Source of the DNA: Candidatus Zixiibacteriota bacterium | Lineage (GTDB): Bacteria; Zixibacteria; MSB-5A5; GN15; FEB-12 | Direction of reading: 5' to 3' | DNA: 61,499 nt | Assembly (NCBI GenBank): GCA_019038695.1 | Contig: JAHOYZ010000032.1 | Span: forward strand, 1 to 61,499 | Shown: positions 29,634-43,246 of the stretch, piece after piece | Layout of the letters: each line of letters begins with the position of its first letter | How positions within the stretch are numbered: the first letter of the stretch is position 1 | Notes under the pieces: generated by a model | What the model was told of the DNA's origin: nothing | What the model saw: the letters and a program-made list of their open reading frames with translations, nothing else | The model's database searches: none | Made by a program: the position numbers and the translations under genes

Positions 29634-30407
29634 ATGTCATTCTTAGACGCCCTGCTTCTGGGAATTCTGCAGGGACTGACCGAGTTCCTGCCGGTGTCAT
29701 CATCCGGACATCTGGTCCTGGCGCAGGCGCTTCTTGGTGTCAAGGAACCCGGTGTCTCCTTTGAACTTCTCGTGCATCTTGGTACGTTGCTGGCTGTGTT
29801 TGTTTATTTCCGAGAACGTATTGGGCAGTTGATCCTGTCTGTATTTAGAAGCGAGATGAAAGCTGAGCGGAGAATATTTGGCTTTCTTGTTATTGGAACA
29901 ATTCCGGCTGGATTAGCTGGAGTGTTTCTGAAGGATTTTTTCGAGGATTCCTTTTCAAGTCCGATCCTGACCTCGGTCATGCTGATTGTGACCGGGTTGA
30001 TTTTGTTATCCACGAAGTTGGTCAAGCCCTCGGACAAACCGATGACACTTCTGTCAACGGTGATTATGGGGATTGGACAGGCGGCTGCAATAATGCCCGG
30101 TATATCGCGCTCGGGGAGCACAATCTCGGTCGGATTGTTGTTAGGTGTCAAACCGGAGAAGGCGGCGGAGTTTTCCTTTCTTCTCGCTATCCCGGCTATT
30201 TTGGGTGCAGTCGTGCTCAAAGCTGACGAGTTGATGGCGCTCGATTCGTCACTCGCACTGCAGTATCTGGTCGGTGCAGTGGCAGCGTTTGTCTTCGGTT
30301 GGCTGGCGGTGGCTATCCTGCTGAGAATCATCCGTCGCGGAAAGTTTGCAGGTTTTGCCTATTATTGTTTTGCCGCCGGTGCGTTTGGACTGTATCTTTT
30401 CCAATAG
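29634..30407 (+). CDS. uppP: Undecaprenyl-diphosphatase
   Basis: A 257-residue integral membrane enzyme of the BacA/UppP family that removes a phosphate from undecaprenyl diphosphate to recycle the lipid carrier for peptidoglycan and O-antigen, also giving bacitracin tolerance. The two family motifs are present: GLTEFLPVSSSGHL and PGISRSGSTIS. About eight hydrophobic segments are visible. The stop is 2 bases before the heptosyltransferase-GmhB gene, so these envelope genes are co-transcribed. Confidence 0.96.
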   Translation: MSFLDALLLGILQGLTEFLPVSSSGHLVLAQALLGVKEPGVSFELLVHLGTLLAVFVYFRERIGQLILSVFRSEMKAERRIFGFLVIGTIPAGLAGVFLKDFFEDSFSSPILTSVMLIVTGLILLSTKLVKPSDKPMTLLSTVIMGIGQAAAIMPGISRSGSTISVGLLLGVKPEKAAEFSFLLAIPAILGAVVLKADELMALDSSLALQYLVGAVAAFVFGWLAVAILLRIIRRGKFAGFAYYCFAAGAFGLYLFQ

Positions 30408-30409
30408 TG

Positions 30410-32002
30410 ATGCGAAAAATCCTTGTCATTCGCTTGGGATCATTGGGTGATGTGTTGCTGACCAGCCCGACCGTGCTCAATCTCAAGATCAGTTTTCCCG
30501 AGAGCAAGCTCACTTATCTCACCAAAGAGCGGTTCCGCTCAGTAGTTGAACGCTTCGATGGCGTCGGTAACGTTGTTACATGGCCAGAAAATATGGGTAA
30601 ACGCAGTGAATTCTTGTTTCTCGCTCTGCTCCGCAAGATGGATTTCGATATTGTCGTCGATTTGCACGGCAACCCACGGTCGTGGCTGACGAGAAAGATA
30701 CTGCCGGCCACACACACAGTAGTTTATCCGAAACGACGATGGGAGCGACGGCAGGCGGTTGACTCCGACCAGCTTCCCCAATCATGGCCGCATACGATTG
30801 ATCTTTACAATGACTGCCTGCGACAGCTTGGGGGAAGGATACCAGCGGCAACCCCAATAATAATCCCTGACGATTCTATGTCTTTGAATCCTGATGTGAT
30901 GATATCGTTAAATAAAAAAGGACCAACAGCCCTGATTGCCCCCGGAGCGGCTCACTCTACCAAAGCATGGCCGGTGAAAAGATTTGCCCAGGTTGCCGAG
31001 CAATTGCACCGTGACCAAGGGATTCATATTATCTGGGCGAGATCATCGTTTGATAATGTTGATACAGAGTACTTCGGTTCACTATGTGCCGAGGCACTCA
31101 CAACTTTGACTGACTGGCCGATTGAGAAGCTTGCCTCAGTTATTGCTCGATGTCGATTGACCATAGCCAATGATTCCGGGCTAGCGCATCTATCATCGTC
31201 GGTCGGTACGCCAGTAATTGCCCTTTTTGGTCCGACCCATCCGGTTCTGGGATTTGCCCCGGCTGGGTTGTTTGACCGGGTTCTTGATGTCGATGAATCC
31301 TGCCGTCCTTGCTCGCTACATGGAAGCAAGTCTTGTCATCGAGAGAAGAGAGTTTGCTTTGACCGGCTGGCAGTCGAGCGGGTTGTCGAGGCCGCTTGCG
31401 GGATTCTCACGAGTGACATAAGAAAACAGGCTGGCCTGTTTGTTGATCGTGACGGTACGTTGATTGTTGATAAGAACTATTTGAAAGACCCCGATGGAGT
31501 AGAGTTTGAAGAGGGTGCGATTGAGGCATTGAAAAGAGCGCATGCGTCTGGTCTGAAGATAGTCGTCGTGTCAAATCAATCAGGGGTGGCTCGCGGATAT
31601 TTCAGCATTGATGACGTTGAAAGAGTCAATCGCAGGTTGTTGGAGATGCTTGCACAGGAGGGTATTGAGCTGGGTGGGTTGTATTACTGTCCCCATCATC
31701 CGGACGGAAGTAACCCTAAATATACTCGGGAATGCCGTTGCCGCAAACCGGCCCCCGGAATGCTTCATCAGGCCGCGATCGAGTTGGGTATTGACCTGAG
31801 AAAATCCTGGGTGGTGGGAGACAAGATTGATGATGTCAATCTTAGCCGGGTTGTGGGTGCCCGTTCAGTTCTTGTCAGGACTGGATATGGACGAGAGGAA
31901 GAACGACGTTTCGTCCCGAGTCGATTCGAAGGCAGAACAATTGTTGCGGATAATTTATTGGCCGCAGTCAGAGAGATTGAGCGAGTTGGTAGTTGTGATT
32001 AA
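30410..32002 (+). CDS. Heptosyltransferase (GT9) fused to GmhB-type heptose bisphosphate phosphatase
   Basis: A 530-residue bifunctional protein. Residues 1 to about 335 form a glycosyltransferase family 9 domain (MRKILVIRLGSLGDVLLTSP at the start, LIAPGAAHSTKAWPVKRFA, NDSGLAHLSSSVGTPVIALFGPT), like WaaF/WaaC heptosyltransferases of the LPS core. Residues about 342-530 are a HAD-IIIA phosphatase: D346-x-D348-GT, SNQSGVARG, the zinc loop CPHHPDG...CRCRKP and VVGDKIDD, all as in GmhB, which makes heptose 1-phosphate in ADP-heptose synthesis. So the chain holds a sugar-activation step and a transfer step. The ATG at 30410 fits the GT9 N-terminus; no strong ribosome site is seen, and coupling to uppP is likely. 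Confidence 0.92.
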   Translation: MRKILVIRLGSLGDVLLTSPTVLNLKISFPESKLTYLTKERFRSVVERFDGVGNVVTWPENMGKRSEFLFLALLRKMDFDIVVDLHGNPRSWLTRKILPATHTVVYPKRRWERRQAVDSDQLPQSWPHTIDLYNDCLRQLGGRIPAATPIIIPDDSMSLNPDVMISLNKKGPTALIAPGAAHSTKAWPVKRFAQVAEQLHRDQGIHIIWARSSFDNVDTEYFGSLCAEALTTLTDWPIEKLASVIARCRLTIANDSGLAHLSSSVGTPVIALFGPTHPVLGFAPAGLFDRVLDVDESCRPCSLHGSKSCHREKRVCFDRLAVERVVEAACGILTSDIRKQAGLFVDRDGTLIVDKNYLKDPDGVEFEEGAIEALKRAHASGLKIVVVSNQSGVARGYFSIDDVERVNRRLLEMLAQEGIELGGLYYCPHHPDGSNPKYTRECRCRKPAPGMLHQAAIELGIDLRKSWVVGDKIDDVNLSRVVGARSVLVRTGYGREEERRFVPSRFEGRTIVADNLLAAVREIERVGSCD

Positions 32003-32984
32003 GAAAGCGGCATATTTAAAGGATCTCGGCGATGGCAAGGTTCAGTGTCTGTTGTGCCCGGCTATGTGCCGTCTGACTCCCGGCAAGAAGGGCATTTGCG
32101 TCAGTCGATACAACTACGAGGGACAGCTTGTGACCGACAACTATGGCGAACTGGTCACACTGGCGGTTGATCCCATCGAAAAGAAACCGTTGTATCATTT
32201 CCATCCCGGTTCGTCGATTCTTTCCACTGGTCCTAACGGCTGCAATATGGGTTGTGTTCATTGTCAGAACTGGTCTATCTCCCAGGAAAGAACCCCCACT
32301 CGATATTTATCTCCCGAAGAGTTGGTTGCGGCGGCTGTGGACAGCAAGTCAATCGGGGTTGCTTTCACCTATACCGAGCCAATCATCTGGTATGAATACA
32401 TTATGGATACCGCCCCGCTGTTGCATCAAGCCGGACTGAAGAGTGTGATGGTTTCCAATGGTTACATTAGTGCTGATCCGATGGATGAACTACTGAAGCA
32501 TATTGACGCTTTCAACATTGACCTGAAAAGTATTCGTTCGCGTCATTATCGTAGAATATGCAAAGCAAAACTGAAGCCGGTACAACAGAGCATCGAGAAA
32601 ATAGTTGCCGCTGGCGTTCACCTTGAGATCACGAACCTGATAATCCCCACGCTCAACGATTCGGATAGTGACCTCATCGCATTATGTGACTACATCGTTT
32701 CGGTCTCGCCAATGATACCGTTGCATCTGTCTGCCTATCATCCCAGTTATCGGCTGGACATTCCCGCGACACCGACGGCGACGATGCAACGAGCCTGGGA
32801 GATCGCACGGCAACGTTTGAAGTATGTGTTTGTTGGGAATCTGATACTGGAGGGGACGAGTGATTCTCATTGTCCTCATTGCGGTAGTTTGCTTATCCGA
32901 CGCGAAGGTTACCAGACAGGGCTTGTGGGGGTTGTTGACGGGCTATGTTCAGAATGCGATTTTACGACAAGTATTGTGCAATAA
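31995..32984 (+). CDS. amrS: AmmeMemoRadiSam system radical SAM enzyme
   Basis: A 329-residue radical SAM protein. The cluster motif is C83-x3-C87-x2-C90 (CNMGCVHC), preceded by the family's N-terminal cysteines (CLLCPAMCRLTPGKKGIC) and followed by AFTYTEPIIWYEY and FNIDLKS, which mark the AmrS/PflA-like group; a C-terminal CPHCGSLL...CSEC zinc-like site is also present. AmrS usually works with Memo and AMMECR1 proteins, none of which is in the window. The best start is GTG 31995, overlapping the previous gene by 8 bases; TTGs slightly upstream are possible. Confidence 0.9.
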   Translation: MIKKAAYLKDLGDGKVQCLLCPAMCRLTPGKKGICVSRYNYEGQLVTDNYGELVTLAVDPIEKKPLYHFHPGSSILSTGPNGCNMGCVHCQNWSISQERTPTRYLSPEELVAAAVDSKSIGVAFTYTEPIIWYEYIMDTAPLLHQAGLKSVMVSNGYISADPMDELLKHIDAFNIDLKSIRSRHYRRICKAKLKPVQQSIEKIVAAGVHLEITNLIIPTLNDSDSDLIALCDYIVSVSPMIPLHLSAYHPSYRLDIPATPTATMQRAWEIARQRLKYVFVGNLILEGTSDSHCPHCGSLLIRREGYQTGLVGVVDGLCSECDFTTSIVQ

Positions 32985-33099: not shown

Positions 33100-35910
33100 A
33101 TGAAGAACAGACATATTTTGATCCGCCTGGCACTATTATTCCTGGTTCTCGGTCTCATTGGTGCAACGTCGGTGAGAGCGCAGTTCTATTTTGGAAAAAA
33201 CAAAGTCCAGTATACGCGTTTTAATTGGCAGCTGATGACTACCGAGCATTTCCGGCTGTATTTCTACGAGACAGAGATGGAGGTAGCCCGGATGGCGGCC
33301 CGTTCGGCTGAGGATTCCTACCGTCTTCTCGCAGCCCGGTTCAACCACGAGATCGAGGACAAGATTCCCCTTATAATCTATTCCTCACCCAATTACTTTA
33401 CGCAGACCAACATTGTCCCAGGGCTTCTGCCGGAGTCGGTGGCGGGATTCACGGAGTTCATGAAGGGAAGAGTTGTCCTGCCGTTTCACGGTTCGTACCA
33501 CGAATTGGACCATGTTATCCGTCACGAACTAGTCCATGTATTCACCTTCGACAAAATCGACCAGACCGTCCAGCGTCGCAGTCGGATCAAGGTTGCCTAC
33601 CCACCTTTGTGGTTCACTGAGGGAATAGCCGAGTTCTGGTCGGAAGAGTGGGACAGCGATGCCGACATGTTTGTCAAGGACATGGTCATCAACGAAAGAT
33701 TGTTCGGAATCCCGGAATTGTATCGCATTCGCGGTACCTATTTCATGTACAAGCTAGGCCAGTCAATCTGCGCCTTCATTGATTCCGCCTATGGTCCCGA
33801 CAAGCTAATGCTGATATTCGATGAATGGTACAAGGGACGCACGTTCAATGAGATTGTAAAGAATGTGCTTGGTGACGACTTGAAGGAACTCTCCCGTAAA
33901 TGGGAATACAGCCTGCGAAAGAAATACTACCCCCAACTTGCCGATCTCGGCTTGCCGGATATGGAATCGGATCGTATCACCAGCGACGGCTATTCGGTCA
34001 AGGGAGTGCCACTCATGTGGGACGATGGTGACGGCCTGAAGGAATGGGTTGTATTCAAGGCCAATCGCCGGGGGTACTCAGGCATATACATGTCCCCAGC
34101 TGAAGGTCCGCGCAAACGCACGGTGCGAACGTTGGTCAAGGGGGAACGCTCATCCGACTTGGAATCACTTTATCTTCTGCGTTCGGGGATAGACGCCCAT
34201 GCCTCAGGTCAGATCGTATTCTCTTCAAAATCAAAAGAAAAAGATGTCATATATATCTACGACCTGGGCGAAAGCAGCATAGTAGCCCGCTACGAATTTG
34301 ATTCGCTGGCGGCGACTCGTTCACCACAGTTTTCACCGGATGGTTCGAAAATAGTTTTCTCCGGCGTTCGTCTTAGCGGATTCACCGATATTTACGTTCT
34401 GGACCTTTCCTCTGGCAACTACGAGTCGCTCACGGACGACATCTATTATGATATTGATCCTGTATTTGCGGCCGACGGTTCCAGTATTATCTTCGTCTCG
34501 GATCGTTGTGTCGAAGGACAGCAAGGGGCTACCAATCTGTATGAGTACGAACTGTCAAGCGGGGCTCTGTCGCAATTGACAAATGGCCCCTATAGCGACC
34601 AATCGCCCGACGGAACTGAAGATGGAATCTATTTTTCATCCGACCGCGAAGGCTGTTTCAATTTGTTCTTGCTCGACCACGATGGGTCATTGTCACGCCA
34701 GTCCACGTTTGTGACCGGGGCTTTTGATCCGAGGTTGACACCAGATGGAGAGCATCTGGTGTACACTGGATATCAGGACATGTCTTTCCAGATTTACCGG
34801 ATGGCACTACCGACCGAGCCGGAGACAATCGCTCAAACTTCGCCCGCTTCGCAGCGACTCTGGAAACCTCTGGAGATATCTTCGGAATACTCTCGCGCCT
34901 CGATCAAGTACGATACCGATTACTCGCTTGATATTGCTCAGTCGAGCATCGGCTACGATCCGGTCTATGGATCGCTTGGTGGTTTCCAATTGGCAATTTC
35001 GGATGTTCTGGGCAATCATGCCTATTATTTACTTCTGGCGAATACGGCCAGCACCAAGGATGAATTCCTGGAGTCATTCAATATCGGAATCACCCACGTC
35101 AACCGCGAAAAACGGATTAACTACGGGCTGGGCGCATATCATATCTACGACGAGTATTTCAATGACTATGATGGCTTCTTTGAGGAACGCGAGGCTGGCA
35201 TCTTCACCCTTCTGAGTTATCCTTTTTCCAAATTCCACCGTATCGATCTGACGAACCTGGCCGCCTACAACAAACGATATCGAAGATACGGCCTGCGCGA
35301 TCGCGAGGCTTTCCTTGGTACACACTATCTGAGCTGGGTGTATGACAACTCTCTCTGGGATATTTCAGGGCCGATTGAAGGCCGTCGCTACAACTTTACG
35401 GTCGGGGCAACCAATCGTCTGGAGACAGGCGAACATTTCAACCGCATGGCGTTAATTGACGTGAGACACTACTTCCGTCTGGGCCGCTACTCCGCTGTAG
35501 CCTCCCGGTTATTTGGTTATTCATCCACCGGGATCGATCCGCAACGAATCCATTTCGGCGGCAGCTGGTCGTTTCGAGGGTACGACCGTCGTCGATTCTA
35601 TGTTCGTAATGTTCTATTCTCCTCGACCGAGCTGAGATTTCCCTTGATCGATCATTTACAGATAGGCTTTCCGTTCGGTGGGTTGGGTTTCAGAGCAATT
35701 CGTGGAGCGCTTTTCTTTGATGTCGCTTACGCTTCGGATACGGGTTTCCGTACCTGGAGGTACGATGACTTCCTGGGTTCCTTTGGGGCTGGAGTACGTC
35801 TTGCACTCGGTCGCGTGATATTATTGCGATTCGACTACATTCATACGACCGACTTCAACACTATCACGCCAAAGGCTGATTTTGACTTTTTCTTTGGATG
35901 GAATTTCTGA
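33100..35910 (+). CDS. Outer-membrane protein: metalloprotease-like domain, TolB-type propeller and BamA-like barrel
   Basis: A 936-residue exported protein with three parts. After a signal peptide ending near SVRA-QF, residues about 30-290 form a gluzincin-like peptidase domain with H142-E143-LV-H146 and E174 in WFTEGIAEF. Residues about 300-590 contain PD40/TolB-like propeller repeats (SPQFSPDGSKIVFSG, DPVFAADGSSIIFVSD). The last 330 residues are a surface-antigen/BamA-like barrel, with SWSFRGYDRR resembling the (V/I)RGF/Y motif. The start could be ATG 33091 or 33100; neither has a strong ribosome site. Its stop overlaps the BamB-like gene. Confidence 0.85.
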   Translation: MKNRHILIRLALLFLVLGLIGATSVRAQFYFGKNKVQYTRFNWQLMTTEHFRLYFYETEMEVARMAARSAEDSYRLLAARFNHEIEDKIPLIIYSSPNYFTQTNIVPGLLPESVAGFTEFMKGRVVLPFHGSYHELDHVIRHELVHVFTFDKIDQTVQRRSRIKVAYPPLWFTEGIAEFWSEEWDSDADMFVKDMVINERLFGIPELYRIRGTYFMYKLGQSICAFIDSAYGPDKLMLIFDEWYKGRTFNEIVKNVLGDDLKELSRKWEYSLRKKYYPQLADLGLPDMESDRITSDGYSVKGVPLMWDDGDGLKEWVVFKANRRGYSGIYMSPAEGPRKRTVRTLVKGERSSDLESLYLLRSGIDAHASGQIVFSSKSKEKDVIYIYDLGESSIVARYEFDSLAATRSPQFSPDGSKIVFSGVRLSGFTDIYVLDLSSGNYESLTDDIYYDIDPVFAADGSSIIFVSDRCVEGQQGATNLYEYELSSGALSQLTNGPYSDQSPDGTEDGIYFSSDREGCFNLFLLDHDGSLSRQSTFVTGAFDPRLTPDGEHLVYTGYQDMSFQIYRMALPTEPETIAQTSPASQRLWKPLEISSEYSRASIKYDTDYSLDIAQSSIGYDPVYGSLGGFQLAISDVLGNHAYYLLLANTASTKDEFLESFNIGITHVNREKRINYGLGAYHIYDEYFNDYDGFFEEREAGIFTLLSYPFSKFHRIDLTNLAAYNKRYRRYGLRDREAFLGTHYLSWVYDNSLWDISGPIEGRRYNFTVGATNRLETGEHFNRMALIDVRHYFRLGRYSAVASRLFGYSSTGIDPQRIHFGGSWSFRGYDRRRFYVRNVLFSSTELRFPLIDHLQIGFPFGGLGFRAIRGALFFDVAYASDTGFRTWRYDDFLGSFGAGVRLALGRVILLRFDYIHTTDFNTITPKADFDFFFGWNF

Positions 35911-37091
35911 TGGTCTTATCAAGGATGACAATAGGGGCAGTGTGCACTTTCCTGATACTGGGGCTGCAAGCTTGCTCCCACAACTACCGATTGGCTCAAG
36001 ACGACCTGGAGCGACATTCTTCCTGGCCGTTCCATCGAGGTGATCTGGCGGCGACAGGGGTAGCTGTTTCCGGCGATTTTGCAGACAAACCTTTTGCGGG
36101 CAAACTTGATGTTATCTGGGAACGCCGCGAATCGGGCAAGCCTGCCGGTCCGCTGGCTCTTTCCCACGGTATTCTTGTGTACCCCTCGGCCAAACGACGG
36201 ATCAAGTTCTTTGAGACTCTCACCGGGAGAAATTTAGGTAAGATCAGGTGTAAGGGTATACCTCAGACGGGGATGGTGATTCAGGACAGTCTGGCCTTCT
36301 TCTCTCTCTCACCAAGAAAAAACCAACTCAATTGTATAAATCTCCGCAATGGCAAGACCATCTGGCGTGACCGCGTAAAGGATGCTGCCAGTGGGTCGAT
36401 AATAGTAAACAACCGGCTTCTGGTCGGTTCGAGAACCGGTCTGCTGATCGCTTATGACCTGAATACCGGTGAGGAGGAGTGGACCTTCCAGACTGAAGGA
36501 AGGCTGATTGCTCCTGCCGCCGGTGACCAAGGTGTGGTGTATCAGGGTGATGACCAGGGAGTCTTGTATGCCCTGACGCCTGACAGTGGAAACCTTCGGT
36601 TTCAGGTGACGCTCGATGGACCATTAGTCAGCGCCCCGGTGCTGTCGGATCTGTTGATCGTCACTGATGTGATCGGAGGCGTCTATGCCCTCGATTCCGA
36701 GACCGGCCAGAAGGTTTGGACGACCAACCTCGATGGTTCCATCTGGGCCGCCCCGGCTGTGTCGGAGGCGAAGGTCTTCATCGGCCTGACGAGCGGCTAC
36801 CTGGTAGCGCTGAATCTCCAGACCGGCACCGAGTTGTGGCGCTACCGGACCGAAGAGGTTGTTCGGGCCGCGCCGGTTGTGATCGGGAAGAACGTGCTGG
36901 TAGGGACTCTGGGCGGGAAGCTGTTCTGTCTCGATGTGATCGACGGTAAGCTACTTGATCAACGTCAGTTGATCGGTGCCATCAGGCAGTGCCCGGTAAG
37001 CGACGGCGACCGGGTCTATGTGGCTACCGAATCGGGAATGATTGTTTGCTGCGGAGAAATCAATGAAACACTCGAACAAGCTCTTCACTGA
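35910..37091 (+). CDS. BamB-like PQQ-repeat beta-propeller lipoprotein
   Basis: A 393-residue lipoprotein: the signal ends with a lipobox LQAC (Cys22). The rest is a PQQ-type propeller with repeats such as GLLIAYDLNTGEEEWTFQ, GVLYALTPDSGNLRFQ, GVYALDSETGQKVWTTNLDG and GYLVALNLQTGTELWRYR, as in BamB or quinoprotein-like propellers; no PQQ enzyme residues are obvious. The start ATG at 35910 overlaps the stop of the barrel gene (TGATG), indicating coupling. A role in outer-membrane protein assembly is inferred from homology and neighbourhood. It overlaps the next gene by 29 bases. Confidence 0.85.
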   Translation: MVLSRMTIGAVCTFLILGLQACSHNYRLAQDDLERHSSWPFHRGDLAATGVAVSGDFADKPFAGKLDVIWERRESGKPAGPLALSHGILVYPSAKRRIKFFETLTGRNLGKIRCKGIPQTGMVIQDSLAFFSLSPRKNQLNCINLRNGKTIWRDRVKDAASGSIIVNNRLLVGSRTGLLIAYDLNTGEEEWTFQTEGRLIAPAAGDQGVVYQGDDQGVLYALTPDSGNLRFQVTLDGPLVSAPVLSDLLIVTDVIGGVYALDSETGQKVWTTNLDGSIWAAPAVSEAKVFIGLTSGYLVALNLQTGTELWRYRTEEVVRAAPVVIGKNVLVGTLGGKLFCLDVIDGKLLDQRQLIGAIRQCPVSDGDRVYVATESGMIVCCGEINETLEQALH

Positions 37092-39279
37092 ATCCACTCT
37101 TGATACTAATCTTAACGAACTAGCCCAGGCTCTGGTGCGGGATTTGTCTATGGCCTGTCGTAAAGTGGCGATCTACGGCCCCAGTCATCCGATGTCATCG
37201 AAGGCGGTTGAGAAGCCATTTTTCTCTCTGGACAAGCTCTTCGCATTTGAGAAATCCGTGCTTTTTGGCATTGAGCGAGGGCATCTCTTCGTTTCGAATA
37301 TCCGCCTCAAGGAATCTGTGTTCACGGAAGAGATTGTTCGTTATATGCAGGTCCTTGGTGTGGACGTTATGTTTTTCAGACAACAGATAACAATGACTGA
37401 ACTGGCGCGGTTTCTGGATCGATTCGTAAAACGCGTTTCCCGAACTGACCAGAGCCAGGTTTTGAGCACCTACCTGAAACGATCTGGTATCGACACGATT
37501 GAAATCAACTCCGAACTGGCTTTCAATTTATTCGAGAATGGCGTCCGGCTTCGGGGCGATGTTGAAGGTGATTTTTCTGTTCGCAATATTGCTCTGCGTC
37601 AGTTAGGAGATTCTCCACTGCGTCTGGCACAAATTATGGACGGCGGTGAAGACGGGCTGGAGACACAGTCAATTGATTTTTCCTATGATATTGTGCAGTA
37701 TCTGATGCCTGAGAAAGTGACTACGCTGGACCCGGACAAAATCAAGAAAGAGATCGTAGCTACCCTTGAGAAACTCAGATCAACTACATCCGACAGCGAG
37801 CAGGCAGCTGAAGTCAGGAAACGCTACAGGTCATTGAAGAAGCTATTGGATTTCCATCCGCAACGTGATCAGATCACTACTCAAATCGAGGATTCGATAG
37901 GCGACAATCGTTTCATGGCGGATGTGTCGCAGGAAGGTGGCGACCCGGTCTCGGCCATCAAGTTCGAATCTCGGGATCAGATTGACAGAGTGTTGAGAGA
38001 ATGTCTCAGCAACGATTCGGTCCCTCTCACCACGCAGGAATTAGTGGATGCGTTTGCTCGTTTGATGCGTACCGGCCAGAAGGGAAAAGCGGCCGAGACA
38101 ATCGAGTTCCTCATGGATTTGCTGGGGTCAACTGATATGCGGGAGCGAGGGCGATCTCTTGATCTTCTGATTGCCCTGGTAGATTCTATACCGGTTCAAA
38201 GTGACTCGACTGTATTTGAAAATATGATTTTGCGTATGGGAACGGTGCTAAATTCAGGAGCCGAATCATTTGAATACTCAGAGCTGATCTGGCGCGCAAT
38301 GGACAAGTGTATCATCTCTCGACGATACGATCTTCTGGCCCGGTTGGCGACTATGGTCGGTGCTCGGCGTCGAGTAGAGGGTGGCGTAATCGTTTATGAT
38401 TCCATCGTGGTCAAGATAATCATCCAGAACATGAATCGCCCGGAAGTAATATCGGCTCTGATTGATGACCTGATAGCCGGCAATTCCGAGACGACTGGTC
38501 ACATTCGAGATACGCTGATTGCGATTGGGGACGAACAAGCGGCGGTCGGATTATCTCGAATAATTTCGCACCCGGCGCGGCATATAAGGCAACTAACACT
38601 GAGAATCCTTGCCGAATTGGGCAGGGCTACGTTGAATGTGTTTTCGGGTATACTGGCCGATGACTCGTTGTTTGAACGTGACAGCAATCGACATGAACTT
38701 CCCGATGTCAAGTGGTATGTCATTCGCAACTCCATTTTCATCCTGGGTCTGTTGGAGGACCAGGAAGGAGTGACTCCATTGCGGTTGCGCATAGGTGACC
38801 CTGATGTCCGGGTCCGACGGGAGATTGTCTCCACGCTTGAGAAGATAGGTGGCGAGGATGCCTGCGATATGCTGACTCTTATGGCCGAGGATGCTGACAA
38901 GCAAATCCGGGAAAGCGCAGTTGTGGCAGTTGGCTTGATCGGCACCGAGGATTTCGCGCCTATGTTGATTGACGCCATGCGGCGACAACCAGCAATTGCC
39001 GTTCGAGGTGTTACTTCTCTGGGACGGATAGGTGGTGAAGGCTCGCGGGAGTTCCTATCACGACTGCTCAAAGACGAAGAGTTACTGGCCGAAATGGCCG
39101 AAGGTGGAGCTTCCCGGGATGAACTCCGATTGGCTATTGTAGCTGCTCTTGGACGTATCGGCGACTCTGCTTCGATAGATCGACTCCGGGAGTTCGAAAG
39201 TTCAATGTCGGTAGCACAGCGGATGCTAAGACAATCGTCTCTCCATAAGGCAGTCACGGAGATCCTGTCCCGCCACTAA
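37063..39279 (+). CDS. HEAT-repeat protein
   Basis: A 738-residue soluble protein. The first 120 residues (AIYGPSHPMSSKAVEKPFF, LFVSNIRLK, GVDVMFFRQQITMTELARFL) match the N-terminal module often seen with HEAT-repeat and HD-GYP proteins of delta-like bacteria. The last 280 residues contain HEAT repeats (LLEDQEGVTPLRLRIGDPDVRVRREI is one; IGGEDACDMLTLMAEDADKQIRES another), which usually bind protein partners. No signal peptide is visible, so it is probably cytoplasmic. ATG 37063 lies inside the end of the BamB-like gene, a sign of translational coupling. Its exact role is unknown. Confidence 0.75.
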   Translation: MKHSNKLFTESTLDTNLNELAQALVRDLSMACRKVAIYGPSHPMSSKAVEKPFFSLDKLFAFEKSVLFGIERGHLFVSNIRLKESVFTEEIVRYMQVLGVDVMFFRQQITMTELARFLDRFVKRVSRTDQSQVLSTYLKRSGIDTIEINSELAFNLFENGVRLRGDVEGDFSVRNIALRQLGDSPLRLAQIMDGGEDGLETQSIDFSYDIVQYLMPEKVTTLDPDKIKKEIVATLEKLRSTTSDSEQAAEVRKRYRSLKKLLDFHPQRDQITTQIEDSIGDNRFMADVSQEGGDPVSAIKFESRDQIDRVLRECLSNDSVPLTTQELVDAFARLMRTGQKGKAAETIEFLMDLLGSTDMRERGRSLDLLIALVDSIPVQSDSTVFENMILRMGTVLNSGAESFEYSELIWRAMDKCIISRRYDLLARLATMVGARRRVEGGVIVYDSIVVKIIIQNMNRPEVISALIDDLIAGNSETTGHIRDTLIAIGDEQAAVGLSRIISHPARHIRQLTLRILAELGRATLNVFSGILADDSLFERDSNRHELPDVKWYVIRNSIFILGLLEDQEGVTPLRLRIGDPDVRVRREIVSTLEKIGGEDACDMLTLMAEDADKQIRESAVVAVGLIGTEDFAPMLIDAMRRQPAIAVRGVTSLGRIGGEGSREFLSRLLKDEELLAEMAEGGASRDELRLAIVAALGRIGDSASIDRLREFESSMSVAQRMLRQSSLHKAVTEILSRH

Positions 39280-39598
39280 CAGGACTCGTTTGCCGGGAGC
39301 ATAACGCCGTACGGCGGACGAGGTCTCTCAACACCCGTGACCTATCCTTTCTTGCATAATCTCCATAGAATCAAACGGTTTGTCCGCAAGCCGCCACAAT
39401 GGCAGGCATCTGCCATATGTGCATATTGTTGCTGTCTATATGGCGGTGATGGTGGGCCATTATGGCAGTATTGGTTGTGTCGCTCTTGTGTCCGGATAGC
39501 TAAGGCATTGCTAATAAACAGGCTACGCCTGTTGGCACGCTTGTTGATTACATTTAAACCAGATGACAACAGATAACCAAATGGTAAGGAGACCTACG
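39280..39598. other. Intergenic region upstream of hsp20 with a repeat fragment
   Basis: 319 bases without a gene. It includes a 17-base fragment of the dispersed repeat (CTCGTTTGCCGGGAGCA at 39286-39302, one mismatch from 42122-42138), a CGCCGTACGGCG hairpin (39305-39316) and the palindrome and promoter-like site listed next. A plus- and a minus-strand frame over this stretch look non-coding. Confidence 0.5.
39517..39548 (+). promoter_or_regulatory. Palindrome and possible sigma-54-like promoter upstream of hsp20
   Basis: AACAGGC-TAC-GCCTGTT is a perfect 7-3-7 palindrome at 39517-39533. It is followed directly by TTGGCACG-CTTG-TTGAT (39532-39548), which fits the -24/-12 sigma-54 consensus TGGCACG-N4-TTGC except that the -12 GC is GA. 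That mismatch makes the promoter call weak; the palindrome may be an operator for the heat-shock gene. Confidence 0.3.
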
Positions 39599-40033
39599 AT
39601 GAGACACTTAGTAGTAACACCAAACAGAATAGCTCGTGACTTTGACCGCATGTTCAACGGCTTCTTCAATGTTTCGAATCAGGAAGGTGATGCCGACGAT
39701 GCCTTTGTGCCGCGAGTCAACATTGAAGAGACAAAAGACGATGTTTCTCTGACTTTCGAACTGCCGGGAGTGGAGAAAGACAGCATCAAGGTCATGGTCA
39801 AAGACGATGTCCTGACTGTTGAAGGCGAGCGGAAATCCAATCGTGAAGTGAATGACGACGATATCGTTGTTCGACGCGAGATTCGCCTGGGTAAGTTCAG
39901 TCGTTCTTTCACTCTGCCGGAAACTGTCGAACCGGATTCGGTCGGAGCTGACTACAACAGCGGCCTTCTGGTAGTCAAGCTGGACAAGAAGGAAGAAGTC
40001 AAGCCGCGCAAGATTGAGGTCAAGATCAGCTAA
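39599..40033 (+). CDS. Small heat-shock protein, Hsp20/alpha-crystallin family
   Basis: A 144-residue ATP-independent chaperone. The alpha-crystallin domain runs from about residue 38 ([43 protein letters not shown]) to about 135, with the conserved SGLLVVKL strand near the end (family motif A-x-x-x-G-x-L) and a C-terminal extension with EVKIS. TAAGGAG lies about ten bases before the ATG at 39599; the open frame begins earlier at 39563 but without a ribosome site. It is followed by a terminator and dnaK, forming a stress cluster. Confidence 0.95.
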
Positions 40034-40086
40034 ACGTTCAGACTATTGTAGGGCCGGTGTCGACCAGCCCAGCCCTTGTCCGCGAG

Positions 40087-40117
40087 AAGCCGGTCGCAAC
40101 CGACCGGCTTTCTTTCT
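40087..40117 (+). terminator. Rho-independent terminator between hsp20 and dnaK
   Basis: AAGCCGGTCG (40087-40096), a CAAC loop, and CGACCGGCTT (40101-40110) form a perfect 10-bp stem followed by TCTTTCT. It should end hsp20 transcripts, so dnaK may have its own promoter or be reached by read-through. Confidence 0.85.
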
Positions 40118-40148
40118 GACACGGATCACAAGAGAGGAGATTTTGGAT

Positions 40149-42050
40149 ATGAGTAAGATAATTGGAATTGACCTGGGTACTACCAACAGCGTCGTCGCCG
40201 TGATTGAGGCGGGAGAACCGGCTGTGATCAATAATTCCGAAGGCGGTCGCACGACTCCCTCGGTGGTGGCTATCGACAAGAATGGTGAACGTCTGGTAGG
40301 CACGGTAGCTAAGCGCCAGGCGGTGAGCAACCCGATGAACACGACTTTTTCGGCTAAACGCCTGCTCGGGCGAACGTTTGATGAAGTGCGGGAGGAGATC
40401 AAGAACTACCCCTACAAAGTCACTGCCAATGACAAAGGGGAGCCGGTCATCGAGATGAACGGCAAGCAGTACGCACCAACCGAGATTTCCGGTATGGTGT
40501 TGACAAAAATGAAAAAGACAGCCGAGGATTATCTGGGTCATTCGATCAAAGAGGCCGTCATTACTGTCCCGGCATATTTCAATGACCGTCAACGTCAGGC
40601 TACTAAAGACGCTGGTCGGATTGCCGGTTTGGAAGTTAAACGAATCATCAACGAGCCGACCGCAGCTGCACTGGCTTACGGTTTGGACAAAAAGAAGACC
40701 GGGAAGATAGGAGTCTATGACCTTGGCGGCGGAACGTTTGACATCTCGATTCTGGAACTGGATGACGGTGTTTTCGAGGTCCTCTCCACTAACGGCGACA
40801 CGCACCTTGGCGGCGACGATTTTGACAAGCGCGTCATCGACTGGCTGGTCGACGAGTTCAAGAAATCGGACGGCATTGATTTGTCGAAAGACCCGATGGC
40901 TCTGCAACGTCTAAAGGAAGCGGCCGAAAAGGCCAAAATCGAACTCAGTTCGACTGTACAGACACAGATCAATCTGCCGTTTGTGACGGCTGATCAGTCC
41001 GGACCGAAACATCTCAACCTGACTCTCTCACGAGCGAAGTTCGAGCAGTTGGTTGACGACCTGCTTCAGCGTTCGATGACTCCGGTCCAGAAGGCACTCG
41101 ACGATGCCGGACTCAAGATCAACCAGATTGATGACGTCCTGATGGTTGGTGGGATGACCCGTATGCCGCGCGTGCAGGAACTCGTGAAGAAGTTCTTCGG
41201 TCGCGAGCCTAACAAGTCGGTCAATCCGGATGAAGTGGTCGCGGTGGGTGCGGCCATTCAGGGTGGAGTGCTTACCGGCGATGTCGAAGACCTCGTTCTC
41301 CTGGACATCACCCCCTTGTCGTTGGGCATCGAAACTCTTGGCGGTGTGACAACCCGCCTGATCGACCGCAACACGACCATCCCGACGAAGAAGTCACAGA
41401 TATTCTCAACGGCTGGCGACAATCAGCCACAGGTTGATATTCATGTCCTGCAGGGCGAGCGGGAGATGGCGATTGACAACAAAACGATTGGTCGTTTCGC
41501 GCTCGATGGTATTTCGCCTGCGCCACGAGGCTTACCGCAAATCGAAGTGTCTTTTGATATTGACGCCAACGGCATCCTCAGTGTGTCGGCCAAAGATATG
41601 GCTACCGGTAAAGAGCAGAATATCAAGATTGAGGCTTCTTCGGGACTCAGTGAGCAGGAGATCGAGAAGATGGTCAACGACGCTAAAGCGCACGAAACCG
41701 AAGACAAAGAAAAGAAACGTACAATTGATGCTCGCAACCAGGCTGATGCGGCTGTGTTCCAGTCGGAACAACAACTCAAAGAGCATGGCGACAAACTGGG
41801 TGCTGACACGAAGACAACAATCGAGACGGCTATGGGCAGAGTCAGAGAAGCTCTCAAAGGCGACAACATCGATGAGATAACATCATCAGCCGAAGCCTTG
41901 CAGCAGACCTGGCATGCAGCCTCGCAGGAGATGTATCAGTCGGCTTCAGCCCAGACCGCTGCCCCGGGTGGTAATGGCTGTGGCGAGAACGGCGGAACCT
42001 GCGACAATGCCGAGACGACAGTCGACGCCGAGTTTGAGGAAGTGAAGTAG
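40149..42050 (+). CDS. dnaK: Chaperone protein DnaK (Hsp70)
   Basis: A 633-residue Hsp70. The ATPase domain begins [14 protein letters not shown] and contains the phosphate loop [12 protein letters not shown] and [11 protein letters not shown]; the substrate domain begins near [16 protein letters not shown] and the protein ends with the classic DAEFEEVK. Near the end the tail has an uncommon Gly-rich stretch with two Cys ([12 protein letters not shown]). GAGAGGAG precedes the ATG at 40149; upstream in-frame codons are not used. DnaK works with DnaJ (42302) and GrpE; no grpE is in the window. Confidence 0.98.
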
Positions 42051-42107
42051 GAAACATGTTTGGATGGTGGGCAGACTTTCCAGTATACCCACCTTCGCTA
42101 TTCTGTG

Positions 42108-42204
42108 CCCGGCAGACGCCCTCGTCTGCCGGGAGCAAACCGGCCCAAACAAGTTTGAGCCGGCCACCCGGTCGTCATACTGAGCAAAGTCGAAGCATGA
42201 CGTG
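42108..42204. repeat. Intergenic repeat cluster between dnaK and dnaJ
   Basis: Three elements lie in a row. First, CCCGGCAGACG/CGTCTGCCGGG, a perfect 11-bp stem at 42108-42133. Second, CCGGCCCAAAC/GTTTGAGCCGG (one mismatch, about 42140-42163), part of the 26-base direct repeat at 42146-42171 that is seen again at 44310-44335. Third, GTCATACTGAGC...CGAAGC (about 42173-42194), resembling the widespread GTCATTCTGAGC intergenic repeat. They suggest dispersed small repeats and could also end dnaK transcripts. Confidence 0.6.
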
Positions 42205-42260
42205 ATTCATAACTTGAGGATAAAATGGGACAATGTTCCTGCGTTCAACTAAGACGATGA

Positions 42261-42289
42261 TGGACAGGCCCCCATAAAGTGGGTATAAT
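42261..42289 (+). promoter_or_regulatory. Strong sigma-70-type promoter upstream of dnaJ
   Basis: TGGACA (42261-42266), a 17-base spacer and a perfect TATAAT (42284-42289). The predicted start of transcription (about 42296) would leave only about six bases before the ATG, placing the AGGTG site (42290-42294) outside the message. So dnaJ may use a near-leaderless message from this promoter, or a longer one from dnaK. Confidence 0.5.
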
Positions 42290-42301
42290 AGGTGAATTGA
42301 T

Positions 42302-43246
42302 ATGGGACAAACATACTACGATACCCTGGGTGTGAACGAGAGTGCTTCGGAAGATGAAGTCAAAAGCGCATTCCGCAAGCTGGCCAAAGAACACCACCCC
42401 GACCGCAACAAAGGGAACAAAGCGTCTGAGGAGAAATTCAAATCAATCTCCGAAGCGTACGACACCCTCTCTGACAAAAGAAAACGCGAAGAATACGACA
42501 CCATGCGCAAGTACGGCGCCTTCTCCGGACGCGGTGCTGGTGGTGGCGGATTTCCTGGCGGTGGTCCGGGAGGTTTTGATTTCTCTGATATGTTTCGTCA
42601 GGGCAATAGCAGACGTGGCGGTTTTCAGACCTTCCGATCTGGCGGCGGTATGGGAGGTATGAATGGTTTCGAAGACATCCTCTCGCAGTTCTTTGGCGGT
42701 GGCGCTGGACAGCAGGGAGATCCGTTTGCGCGACAACGACAGCGCAGGCCACGTCGTGGCCAGAGCTTGACAGCAACGCTCAATATTTCTTTTCTGGAGA
42801 TGGTCAACGGAACGACCAGAACGCTGCAAATCAATCAGACTAATAAGAAACTAGCGGTGAAGATTCCCCCCGGGATCGTAAGTGGCGGGAAGATTCGTCT
42901 GGCCGGACAGGGATTGGTGGGACCGACAGGACAAAACAATGGTGACCTCATAATAACGGTGCATGTAATGCCGGATCAAAATTTCGAGCGCAAAGGGAAC
43001 GACGTTCACACGAGTGTGTCTATTTCATTCAAAGACGCGATCCTTGGGTCGCAGATTGAGGTGGCGACTCTCACCAAGAAAGTCAACCTTCGCATCCCAG
43101 CCGGAACCCAACCGGGCACGAAGATGCGCCTGAAGGGTCAGGGATTGGCAGTCGGGTCAACGGGTGACTTGTATGTGACGATCAATATCGACATCCCCAC
43201 GACGATTACAGATGAGCAGAGGAAGATTTTGGAGGAGTGGGGGTAG
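42302..43246 (+). CDS. DnaJ-class co-chaperone without zinc finger (CbpA-like)
   Basis: A 314-residue class II J protein. The J domain has H32-P33-D34 and ends near residue 70; a Gly/Phe-rich region follows (FSGRGAGGGG, GGGMGGMNGFEDIL). There is no CxxCxGxG zinc finger; the rest is the two beta-barrel C-terminal domains (LKLNISFLEMVNGTTRTL-like, KIPPGIVSGGKIRLAGQG, LRIPAGTQPGTKMRLKGQG). It stimulates DnaK. It lies 251 bases after dnaK with its own likely promoter. AGGTG lies 7 bases before the ATG. Confidence 0.95.
   Translation: MGQTYYDTLGVNESASEDEVKSAFRKLAKEHHPDRNKGNKASEEKFKSISEAYDTLSDKRKREEYDTMRKYGAFSGRGAGGGGFPGGGPGGFDFSDMFRQGNSRRGGFQTFRSGGGMGGMNGFEDILSQFFGGGAGQQGDPFARQRQRRPRRGQSLTATLNISFLEMVNGTTRTLQINQTNKKLAVKIPPGIVSGGKIRLAGQGLVGPTGQNNGDLIITVHVMPDQNFERKGNDVHTSVSISFKDAILGSQIEVATLTKKVNLRIPAGTQPGTKMRLKGQGLAVGSTGDLYVTINIDIPTTITDEQRKILEEWG

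What the first reader, a model, noticed from the sequence alone, without database searches (positions are those of the whole stretch)
33100..39279. Three-part metalloprotease/propeller/barrel protein coupled to a BamB-like lipoprotein and a HEAT protein
Seen: one gene joins a HExxH domain, TolB-like repeats and a BamA-like barrel; it overlaps a PQQ-propeller lipoprotein gene, which overlaps a HEAT gene by 29 bases. Inferred: a self-contained envelope module in which substrate processing or capture and membrane insertion are linked; this arrangement is unlike classic BAM or protease systems.
Basis: partly seen in the sequence, partly recalled or inferred. Interest (0 to 1): 0.6.

Follow-up and report, generated by a model that had tools for sequence, protein, structure and literature searches.

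The report
Protease-propeller-Omp85 fusion with BamB-like partner
Nearly every genome of a little-known bacterial phylum carries a BamA-superfamily outer-membrane protein with a zinc-protease domain and a TolB-like propeller built in, encoded next to a BamB-like lipoprotein, which suggests a protein-processing or quality-control station at the outer membrane; the barrel-plus-propeller half was catalogued in 2014 but its function has not been tested.

Summary
The window is from a Candidatus Zixiibacteriota genome. Gene 1 (33103-35910) encodes a signal peptide, a gluzincin protease domain (HELVH, third ligand E173), a TolB-like propeller and an Omp85 barrel. The AlphaFold2 model (pLDDT 87) matches TolB (Z 26.6) and BamA/Sam50/TamA (Z 22-23.5). 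All 132 phylum genomes searched have a match, mostly full length. The zinc/catalytic residues are invariant in 79/79 aligned proteins, including a second paralogue family that sits next to murA in 20/20 loci. Gene 2 (35910-37091), an eight-bladed lipoprotein, lies downstream on the same strand in all 60 loci with room for it, 58 of them directly adjacent. The HEAT gene has no signal peptide and is often missing, so it is not part of an envelope module. The genome also has BamA, TolB and BamD-like proteins, so this does not replace BAM. Barrel plus propeller corresponds to the untested 'WD40-Omp85' subfamily (Heinz and Lithgow 2014). The built-in protease and the fixed BamB-like partner were not found described in the papers searched. 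Best reading: a periplasm-facing processing or quality-control Omp85 protein with a lipoprotein partner. The anatomy is shown; the mechanism is inferred.

The parts
33103..35910 (+). Gene 1: protease-propeller-Omp85 fusion, 935 aa (ORF open from TTG 33085)
   Evidence: full-length relatives across the phylum
33103..33183 (+). Signal peptide (MKNRHILIRLALLFLVLGLIGATSVRA), mature protein probably starting at QFYFGKNK
   Evidence: sequence inspection; hydrophobic leader followed by AQ in most relatives
33184..33972 (+). Gluzincin (Peptidase_MA_2) domain, residues 28-290
   Evidence: PF13485 35.1 bits vs cut-off 32.4; 32 of 33 members match
33523..33537 (+). HELVH zinc/catalytic motif, H141 E142 H145
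   Evidence: invariant in 79/79
33619..33621 (+). E173, proposed third zinc ligand (PLWFTEG)
   Evidence: invariant in 79/79; ligand role inferred from gluzincin families
33973..34827 (+). TolB-like beta-propeller, residues 291-575
   Evidence: VIA-align Z 26.6, rmsd 2.2, 238 residues to E. coli TolB 1crz
34894..35907 (+). Omp85 beta-barrel, residues about 598-935, ending ...FFFGWNF
   Evidence: VIA-align Z 23.5, rmsd 3.4, 299 residues to D. radiodurans BamA 8xnb
35575..35583 (+). Omp85 loop-6 RGY motif (R825 79/79, G826 78/79)
35719..35721 (+). D873 of the FFD.G/A strand, invariant
35910..37091 (+). Gene 2: BamB-like eight-bladed propeller lipoprotein, 393 aa, start overlapping the stop of gene 1 by one base
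35973..35975 (+). Cys22 of the lipobox (LGLQAC), proposed lipid attachment site
   Evidence: invariant in 60/60
37063..39279 (+). HEAT-repeat protein gene, overlaps gene 2 by 29 bases; probably cytoplasmic and not a core part
   Evidence: PF13646 5.1e-21; optional neighbour

Best explanation
Genes 1 and 2 encode a two-protein outer-membrane device. Gene 1's protein is exported, its C-terminal Omp85 barrel sits in the outer membrane, and its TolB-like propeller and zinc protease hang in the periplasm. The propeller, together with the BamB-like lipoprotein from the translationally coupled gene 2, captures client proteins on their way to or through the outer membrane; the protease trims or removes them (processing or quality control), while the Omp85 barrel offers an assembly or translocation site. 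It works like a fusion of a BepA-type quality-control protease with a BamA-type barrel, but it belongs to the BepA and BamA families in neither sequence nor POTRA content. Shown: domain make-up, invariant catalytic and Omp85 residues, conserved gene pair, coexistence with canonical BamA. Inferred: periplasmic topology, protease activity, physical contact of the two proteins, and any role in assembly.
For: Three domains by profile and by fold. H141/E142/H145/E173 invariant in 79/79, including paralogues at about 30% identity; the protease is the best conserved of the three domains within orthologues (mean 59% vs 50% propeller, 56% barrel), so catalysis appears to be under selection. Omp85 loop-6 R825/G826 and D873 conserved. 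Lipoprotein gene downstream on the same strand in 60/60 loci with room, retained where upstream UppP and radical-SAM linkages are lost (0/24, 0/29). Lipid cysteine 60/60. Envelope gene context: UppP and heptosyltransferase/GmhB 32/32 in the order; paralogue beside murA 20/20. Precedents: BepA, an M48 metallopeptidase, acts on LptD and BamA at the BAM complex (PMC8423444); the patatin domain of PlpD, another enzyme-Omp85 fusion, stays in the periplasm (PMC11116518).
Against: No experiment, no substrate, no complex model. The barrel could be only an anchor or a channel. The genome already has BamA, a BamD-like protein and M48 peptidases. The closest folds to the gene 2 protein are not BamB (YxaL Z 41.5 vs BamB Z 37.5), so its eight-bladed fold does not by itself imply a BAM role. 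In Salinibacter a relative of the protease-propeller unit exists without a barrel, so the enzyme unit can serve without one.
Confidence: 0.42

Rival explanations
1. Surface protease: the protease-propeller part is carried through its own Omp85 barrel to the cell surface and displayed or released, as once proposed for PlpD (type Vd secretion).
For: Domain order enzyme-then-barrel is the same as in PlpD; Omp85 barrels can translocate (discussed in PMC4104836).
Against: For PlpD itself the enzyme domain was found in the periplasm (PMC11116518). Conservation across the phylum with envelope-biogenesis neighbours and a lipoprotein partner fits housekeeping better than an exoprotease. A folded propeller would be a hard passenger (inference).
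Confidence: 0.13
2. Anchored periplasmic maturation protease: the barrel is only a membrane anchor or small channel, and the protease matures or turns over envelope proteins, with no part in inserting other barrels.
For: Modular enzyme unit without barrel in Salinibacter ruber; paralogue always beside murA; canonical BamA present.
Against: Omp85 loop-6 and D873 residues are kept without exception or nearly so, more than a mere anchor would seem to need.
Confidence: 0.3
3. Tol-Pal-like tether: the TolB-like propeller binds Pal or other peptidoglycan-linked proteins and joins outer membrane to cell wall, the protease acting as a regulator.
For: Propeller is closest in fold to TolB (Z 26.6).
Against: The genome has a separate canonical TolB beside a TolA-like gene end; TIGR02800 score 114 is far below its cut-off 343.
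Confidence: 0.1
4. The protease domain is catalytically dead and serves as a chaperone or binding domain.
For: Enzyme-derived envelope domains can lose catalysis (general knowledge).
Against: H141, E142, H145 and E173 invariant in 79/79 and present in the Salinibacter relative.
Confidence: 0.05

Closest known systems
WD40-Omp85 subfamily (Heinz and Lithgow 2014, PMC4104836)
   Same: C-terminal Omp85 barrel, N-terminal beta-propeller closest to TolB, non-POTRA N-terminus; described there as reminiscent of a BamA-BamB fusion.
   Different: That paper's text names no protease domain in this subfamily and no genetically linked BamB-like lipoprotein; its supplementary tables could not be read, so its members may well be this same family.
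'Metallo' Omp85 subfamily (same paper)
   Same: An N-terminal metalloenzyme domain on an Omp85 barrel.
   Different: That domain is PF00149, the calcineurin-like phosphoesterase family (called a metalloprotease there), not an HExxH peptidase; no propeller.
PlpD, patatin-like Omp85
   Same: Enzyme fused N-terminally to an Omp85 barrel; enzyme domain periplasmic.
   Different: Patatin lipase plus a POTRA domain; no propeller, no protease, no lipoprotein partner gene.
BepA plus BAM complex
   Same: Zinc metallopeptidase (HExxH plus Glu) acting at an Omp85 machine.
   Different: BepA is a separate M48 protein with TPR repeats; here the protease is of another gluzincin branch and covalently joined, with a propeller.
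BamB
   Same: Eight-bladed outer-membrane-type lipoprotein propeller.
   Different: Scores 129 bits against the BamB cut-off 285; encoded with an Omp85 protein in which no POTRA domain was detected, not with bamA; other eight-bladed proteins are as close or closer in fold.
Salinibacter ruber WP_118831798.1 (plasmid pSR116)
   Same: Homologous protease-propeller unit with the YFGKNK start and all catalytic residues.
   Different: 633 aa, no barrel; next gene is a serine carypeptidase-like (PF00450) protein.

Membership tests
Omp85 superfamily | C-terminal Omp85-type barrel fold | tested here: met
   Z 23.5/3.4 A/299 residues to BamA 8xnb, Z 22-23 to Sam50 and TamA; PF01103 42.6 bits in orthologue L119 and 37.1 in the paralogue, cut-off 24
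Omp85 superfamily | Loop-6 RG(F/Y) motif and partner Asp | tested here: met
   R825 79/79, G826 78/79, Y/F827 72/79, D873 79/79
Omp85 superfamily | 16 transmembrane strands | tested here: inconclusive
   Model shows 15 clear strands plus a short N-terminal pair; residues 614-626 have pLDDT under 50
WD40-Omp85 subfamily | TolB-like propeller N-terminal to the barrel | tested here: met
   Z 26.6 to TolB, residues 313-572
WD40-Omp85 subfamily | Clusters with the 2014 subfamily by sequence | not testable with these tools
BamA | POTRA domains | tested here: not met
   No POTRA family at E up to 1; residues before the barrel are protease and propeller in the model
BamA | TIGR03303 over cut-off | tested here: not met
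   The gene is not among the matches; the genome's BamA is at C4 with 440 bits
TolB | TIGR02800 equivalog cut-off | tested here: not met
   114 vs 343 bits
Gluzincin / Peptidase_MA | HExxH plus downstream Glu | tested here: met
   Invariant in 79/79; PF13485 over cut-off for the domain alone
Gluzincin / Peptidase_MA | Zinc-dependent peptidase activity | not testable with these tools
   Needs biochemistry
BepA (M48) | Peptidase_M48 domain | tested here: not met
   No PF01435 match at E up to 1
Metallo-Omp85 (PF00149) | Metallophosphoesterase domain | tested here: not met
   No PF00149 match at E up to 1
BamB (gene 2) | Eight-bladed propeller | tested here: met
   Model pLDDT 95.6 with eight four-stranded repeats; Z 37.5 to BamB, but YxaL Z 41.5 and others rank higher
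BamB (gene 2) | Lipoprotein | tested here: met
   Cys22 invariant in 60/60 at the end of a hydrophobic leader
BamB (gene 2) | TIGR03300 equivalog cut-off | tested here: not met
   129 vs 285.2 bits
BamB (gene 2) | Binding to BamA POTRA 3 | not testable with these tools
   No complex prediction available

The most novel reading that the evidence does not exclude
A POTRA-less Omp85 machine in which a gluzincin protease, a TolB-like propeller and the barrel are one polypeptide and a BamB-like lipoprotein is its dedicated partner: a one-protein assembly-plus-quality-control site, present throughout a phylum beside classical BAM, with a second specialised copy tied to murA.
Probability: 0.3. Interest if true: 0.75.

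Novelty: new variant of a known kind. Interest (0 to 1): 0.5.

Why it matters
Most Omp85 subfamilies without POTRA domains have no known function. This one has an invariant catalytic site that can be mutated, a fixed partner and near-universal presence in a phylum, so it makes the open question of what the WD40-type Omp85 proteins do directly testable, and it offers a natural fusion of a protease with an Omp85 barrel, where E. coli uses separate proteins.

Tried and rejected
Rejected: replacement of BamA (canonical bamA with skp and lpxD downstream). Rejected: HEAT as a module member. Rejected: ATG 35898 as the conserved start of gene 2. Led nowhere: a search of viral contigs for relatives; plasmid searches found only the barrel-less Salinibacter relative plus propeller-only matches; genomes of other phyla could not be centred on; whole genome not available as a file. 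PDB profile search with the protease domain alone gave only weak hits (collagenase E 0.017); the fold lists are filled by propeller and barrel, so the protease fold was not tested separately. LptD by PF04453 not found, but the model rings only in two proteobacterial controls, so nothing follows. Promoter and terminator scans were at background. Paper searches for the protease-propeller-barrel combination found nothing beyond PMC4104836. No complex of the two proteins could be modelled.

Full report
Where the window comes from. Close relatives of the main gene lie in records titled Candidatus Zixiibacteriota (two titled Calditrichota), and the window is one contig of a 3.28 Mb, 96% complete genome. 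The order and class labels used below are those given by the genome search.

What is there. Three + strand genes follow one another. Gene 1 is open from TTG 33085, with the most likely start at ATG 33103, and stops at 35910. Gene 2 runs to 37091 and gene 3 from 37063 to 39279. Gene 1 carries a hydrophobic leader ending in VRA-Q, then a Peptidase_MA_2 domain with HELVH and PLWFTEG, PD40/TolB repeats, and an Omp85-type C-terminus. Residues are numbered from ATG 33103.

Structure. With an alignment of 79 relatives (A1) AlphaFold2 gave pLDDT 87.2 and pTM 0.83. The propeller aligns to TolB (Z 26.6, 2.2 A, 238 residues) and the barrel to BamA of Deinococcus (Z 23.5, 3.4 A, 299 residues), Sam50 and TamA. 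The protease part is well predicted in most blocks but its fold was not searched on its own, because the other two domains fill the list. The strand count is 15 clear strands plus a short N-terminal pair, so 16 is likely but not shown.

Conservation. All 132 phylum genomes searched have a match at E 0.001 or better. In about ten genomes, most of them incomplete assemblies, the best match is a fragment, a weak match or the second paralogue, so strict universality of this orthologue is not proved. Orthologues are 43-77% identical. H141, E142, H145 and E173 are invariant in 79 of 79, including 16 members of a second, longer paralogue family at about 30% identity; E177 is 78 of 79; the Omp85 residues R825 and D873 are invariant. 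Among orthologues the protease domain is the best conserved of the three (59% mean identity, against 50% propeller and 56% barrel). This is what selection for catalysis would look like; activity itself is untested.

Gene order. Of 62 loci read, two end within 230 bases of gene 1. In all other 60 the next relevant gene on the same strand is the BamB-like one; one of the 60 (L130) shows only an 89-residue fragment at a contig edge, and in two (L108, L112, one family) about 2 kb lies between (an apparent prolyl oligopeptidase-type gene in L108). In the order, UppP and heptosyltransferase/GmhB precede it in 32/32 loci and the radical-SAM gene in 24/32; in other families of the class these are gone (UppP 0/24, radical SAM 0/29, heptosyltransferase match 3/25) while the BamB-like gene stays (27/28 by BLAST; all by HMM). 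HEAT follows in 23/29 and 13/23, the small heat-shock gene in 24/29 and 16/22. The stop of gene 1 and the start of gene 2 overlap by one base (TGATG/TAATG type) in 31/32 loci of the order and 10/30 of the others, a pattern expected for translational coupling (general knowledge). The 13-base overlap implied by ATG 35898 comes from the conserved Gly-Trp codons and is probably not the start.

Gene 2. Its leader ends in a cysteine that is invariant in 60/60. The model has pLDDT 95.6 and eight blades. It resembles BamB (Z 37.5) but several other eight-bladed proteins rank higher (YxaL 41.5, Rv3035 homologue 40.6), and it fails the BamB equivalog cut-off (129 vs 285 bits). So it is BamB-like in shape and lipidation, not a demonstrated BamB. 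It is the only stand-alone protein of this size found with PF13360 in the genome; the other matches are in open frames of 1419 and 1705 aa.

Gene 3. HEAT repeats, no signal peptide by inspection, patchy presence. It is probably cytoplasmic and a frequent neighbour rather than a part of the device.

Rest of the envelope kit. The same genome has BamA (440 bits, cut-off 297) followed by Skp-like and LpxD-like genes, a TolB beside a TolA/TonB-like C-terminus, a BamD-like protein, and M48 peptidases. The three-domain protein therefore acts in addition to BAM.

Second paralogue. About 1020-1220 aa, same three domains, longer segments at the propeller/barrel junction (43-126 residues) and about 25 residues just before the loop-6 motif. 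It sits beside a murA-type gene (EPSP synthase family) in 20/20 loci read, with no BamB-like gene nearby.

Elsewhere. A Salinibacter ruber plasmid protein (another phylum) has the same protease-propeller unit, including the YFGKNK start and all catalytic residues, but no barrel. The enzyme unit is thus a module. Whether barrel-bearing members exist outside the phylum could not be tested here.

Comparison with what is known. Heinz and Lithgow (PMC4104836) sorted Omp85 proteins into ten bacterial subfamilies, one being WD40-Omp85, a TolB-like propeller on a barrel, likened to a BamA-BamB fusion; function untested. A 2024 paper still lists this group as not well characterised (PMC11116518). Their Metallo group carries PF00149, a phosphoesterase domain, not an HExxH peptidase. 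A search of held papers found no description of the protease domain or the lipoprotein partner; subscription papers and the supplements are not covered. The finding is best filed as a new variant of a known kind.

Mechanism. The best-supported reading is a periplasm-facing protease-propeller on an Omp85 barrel, working with a lipoprotein partner on clients at the outer membrane. The step from anatomy to assembly or quality control rests on analogy with BepA at BAM (PMC8423444) and PlpD topology (PMC11116518), and on gene context. It is inferred, confidence about 0.4. The main rival, that the barrel is only an anchor for a maturation protease, is not excluded.

Noticed in passing
window 30299-32002 (+): One gene fuses a GT9 heptosyltransferase with a GmhB-type heptose bisphosphate phosphatase; a match to this gene precedes the finding in 32/32 loci of the order.
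   Followed up: partly
window 31827-32984 (+): AmmeMemoRadiSam radical SAM enzyme (TIGR04337, 325 bits) between the heptose gene and the finding; present in 24 of 32 order loci.
   Followed up: no
L078 4044-7346 (-), genome G000 contig C22: Second protease-propeller-Omp85 paralogue, beside a murA-type gene in 20/20 loci read across the phylum.
   Followed up: partly
L141 3923-5824 (Salinibacter ruber pSR116): Barrel-less relative of the protease-propeller unit on a plasmid of another phylum.
   Followed up: partly
window 39563-43246 (+): Small heat-shock protein, DnaK and DnaJ genes follow the finding; the sHSP linkage is kept in 16 of 22 loci of other families.
   Followed up: partly
PMC4104836: The paper calls PF00149 a metalloprotease; PF00149 is the calcineurin-like phosphoesterase family (own knowledge), so its 'Metallo' Omp85 group is probably not a protease group.
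   Followed up: no
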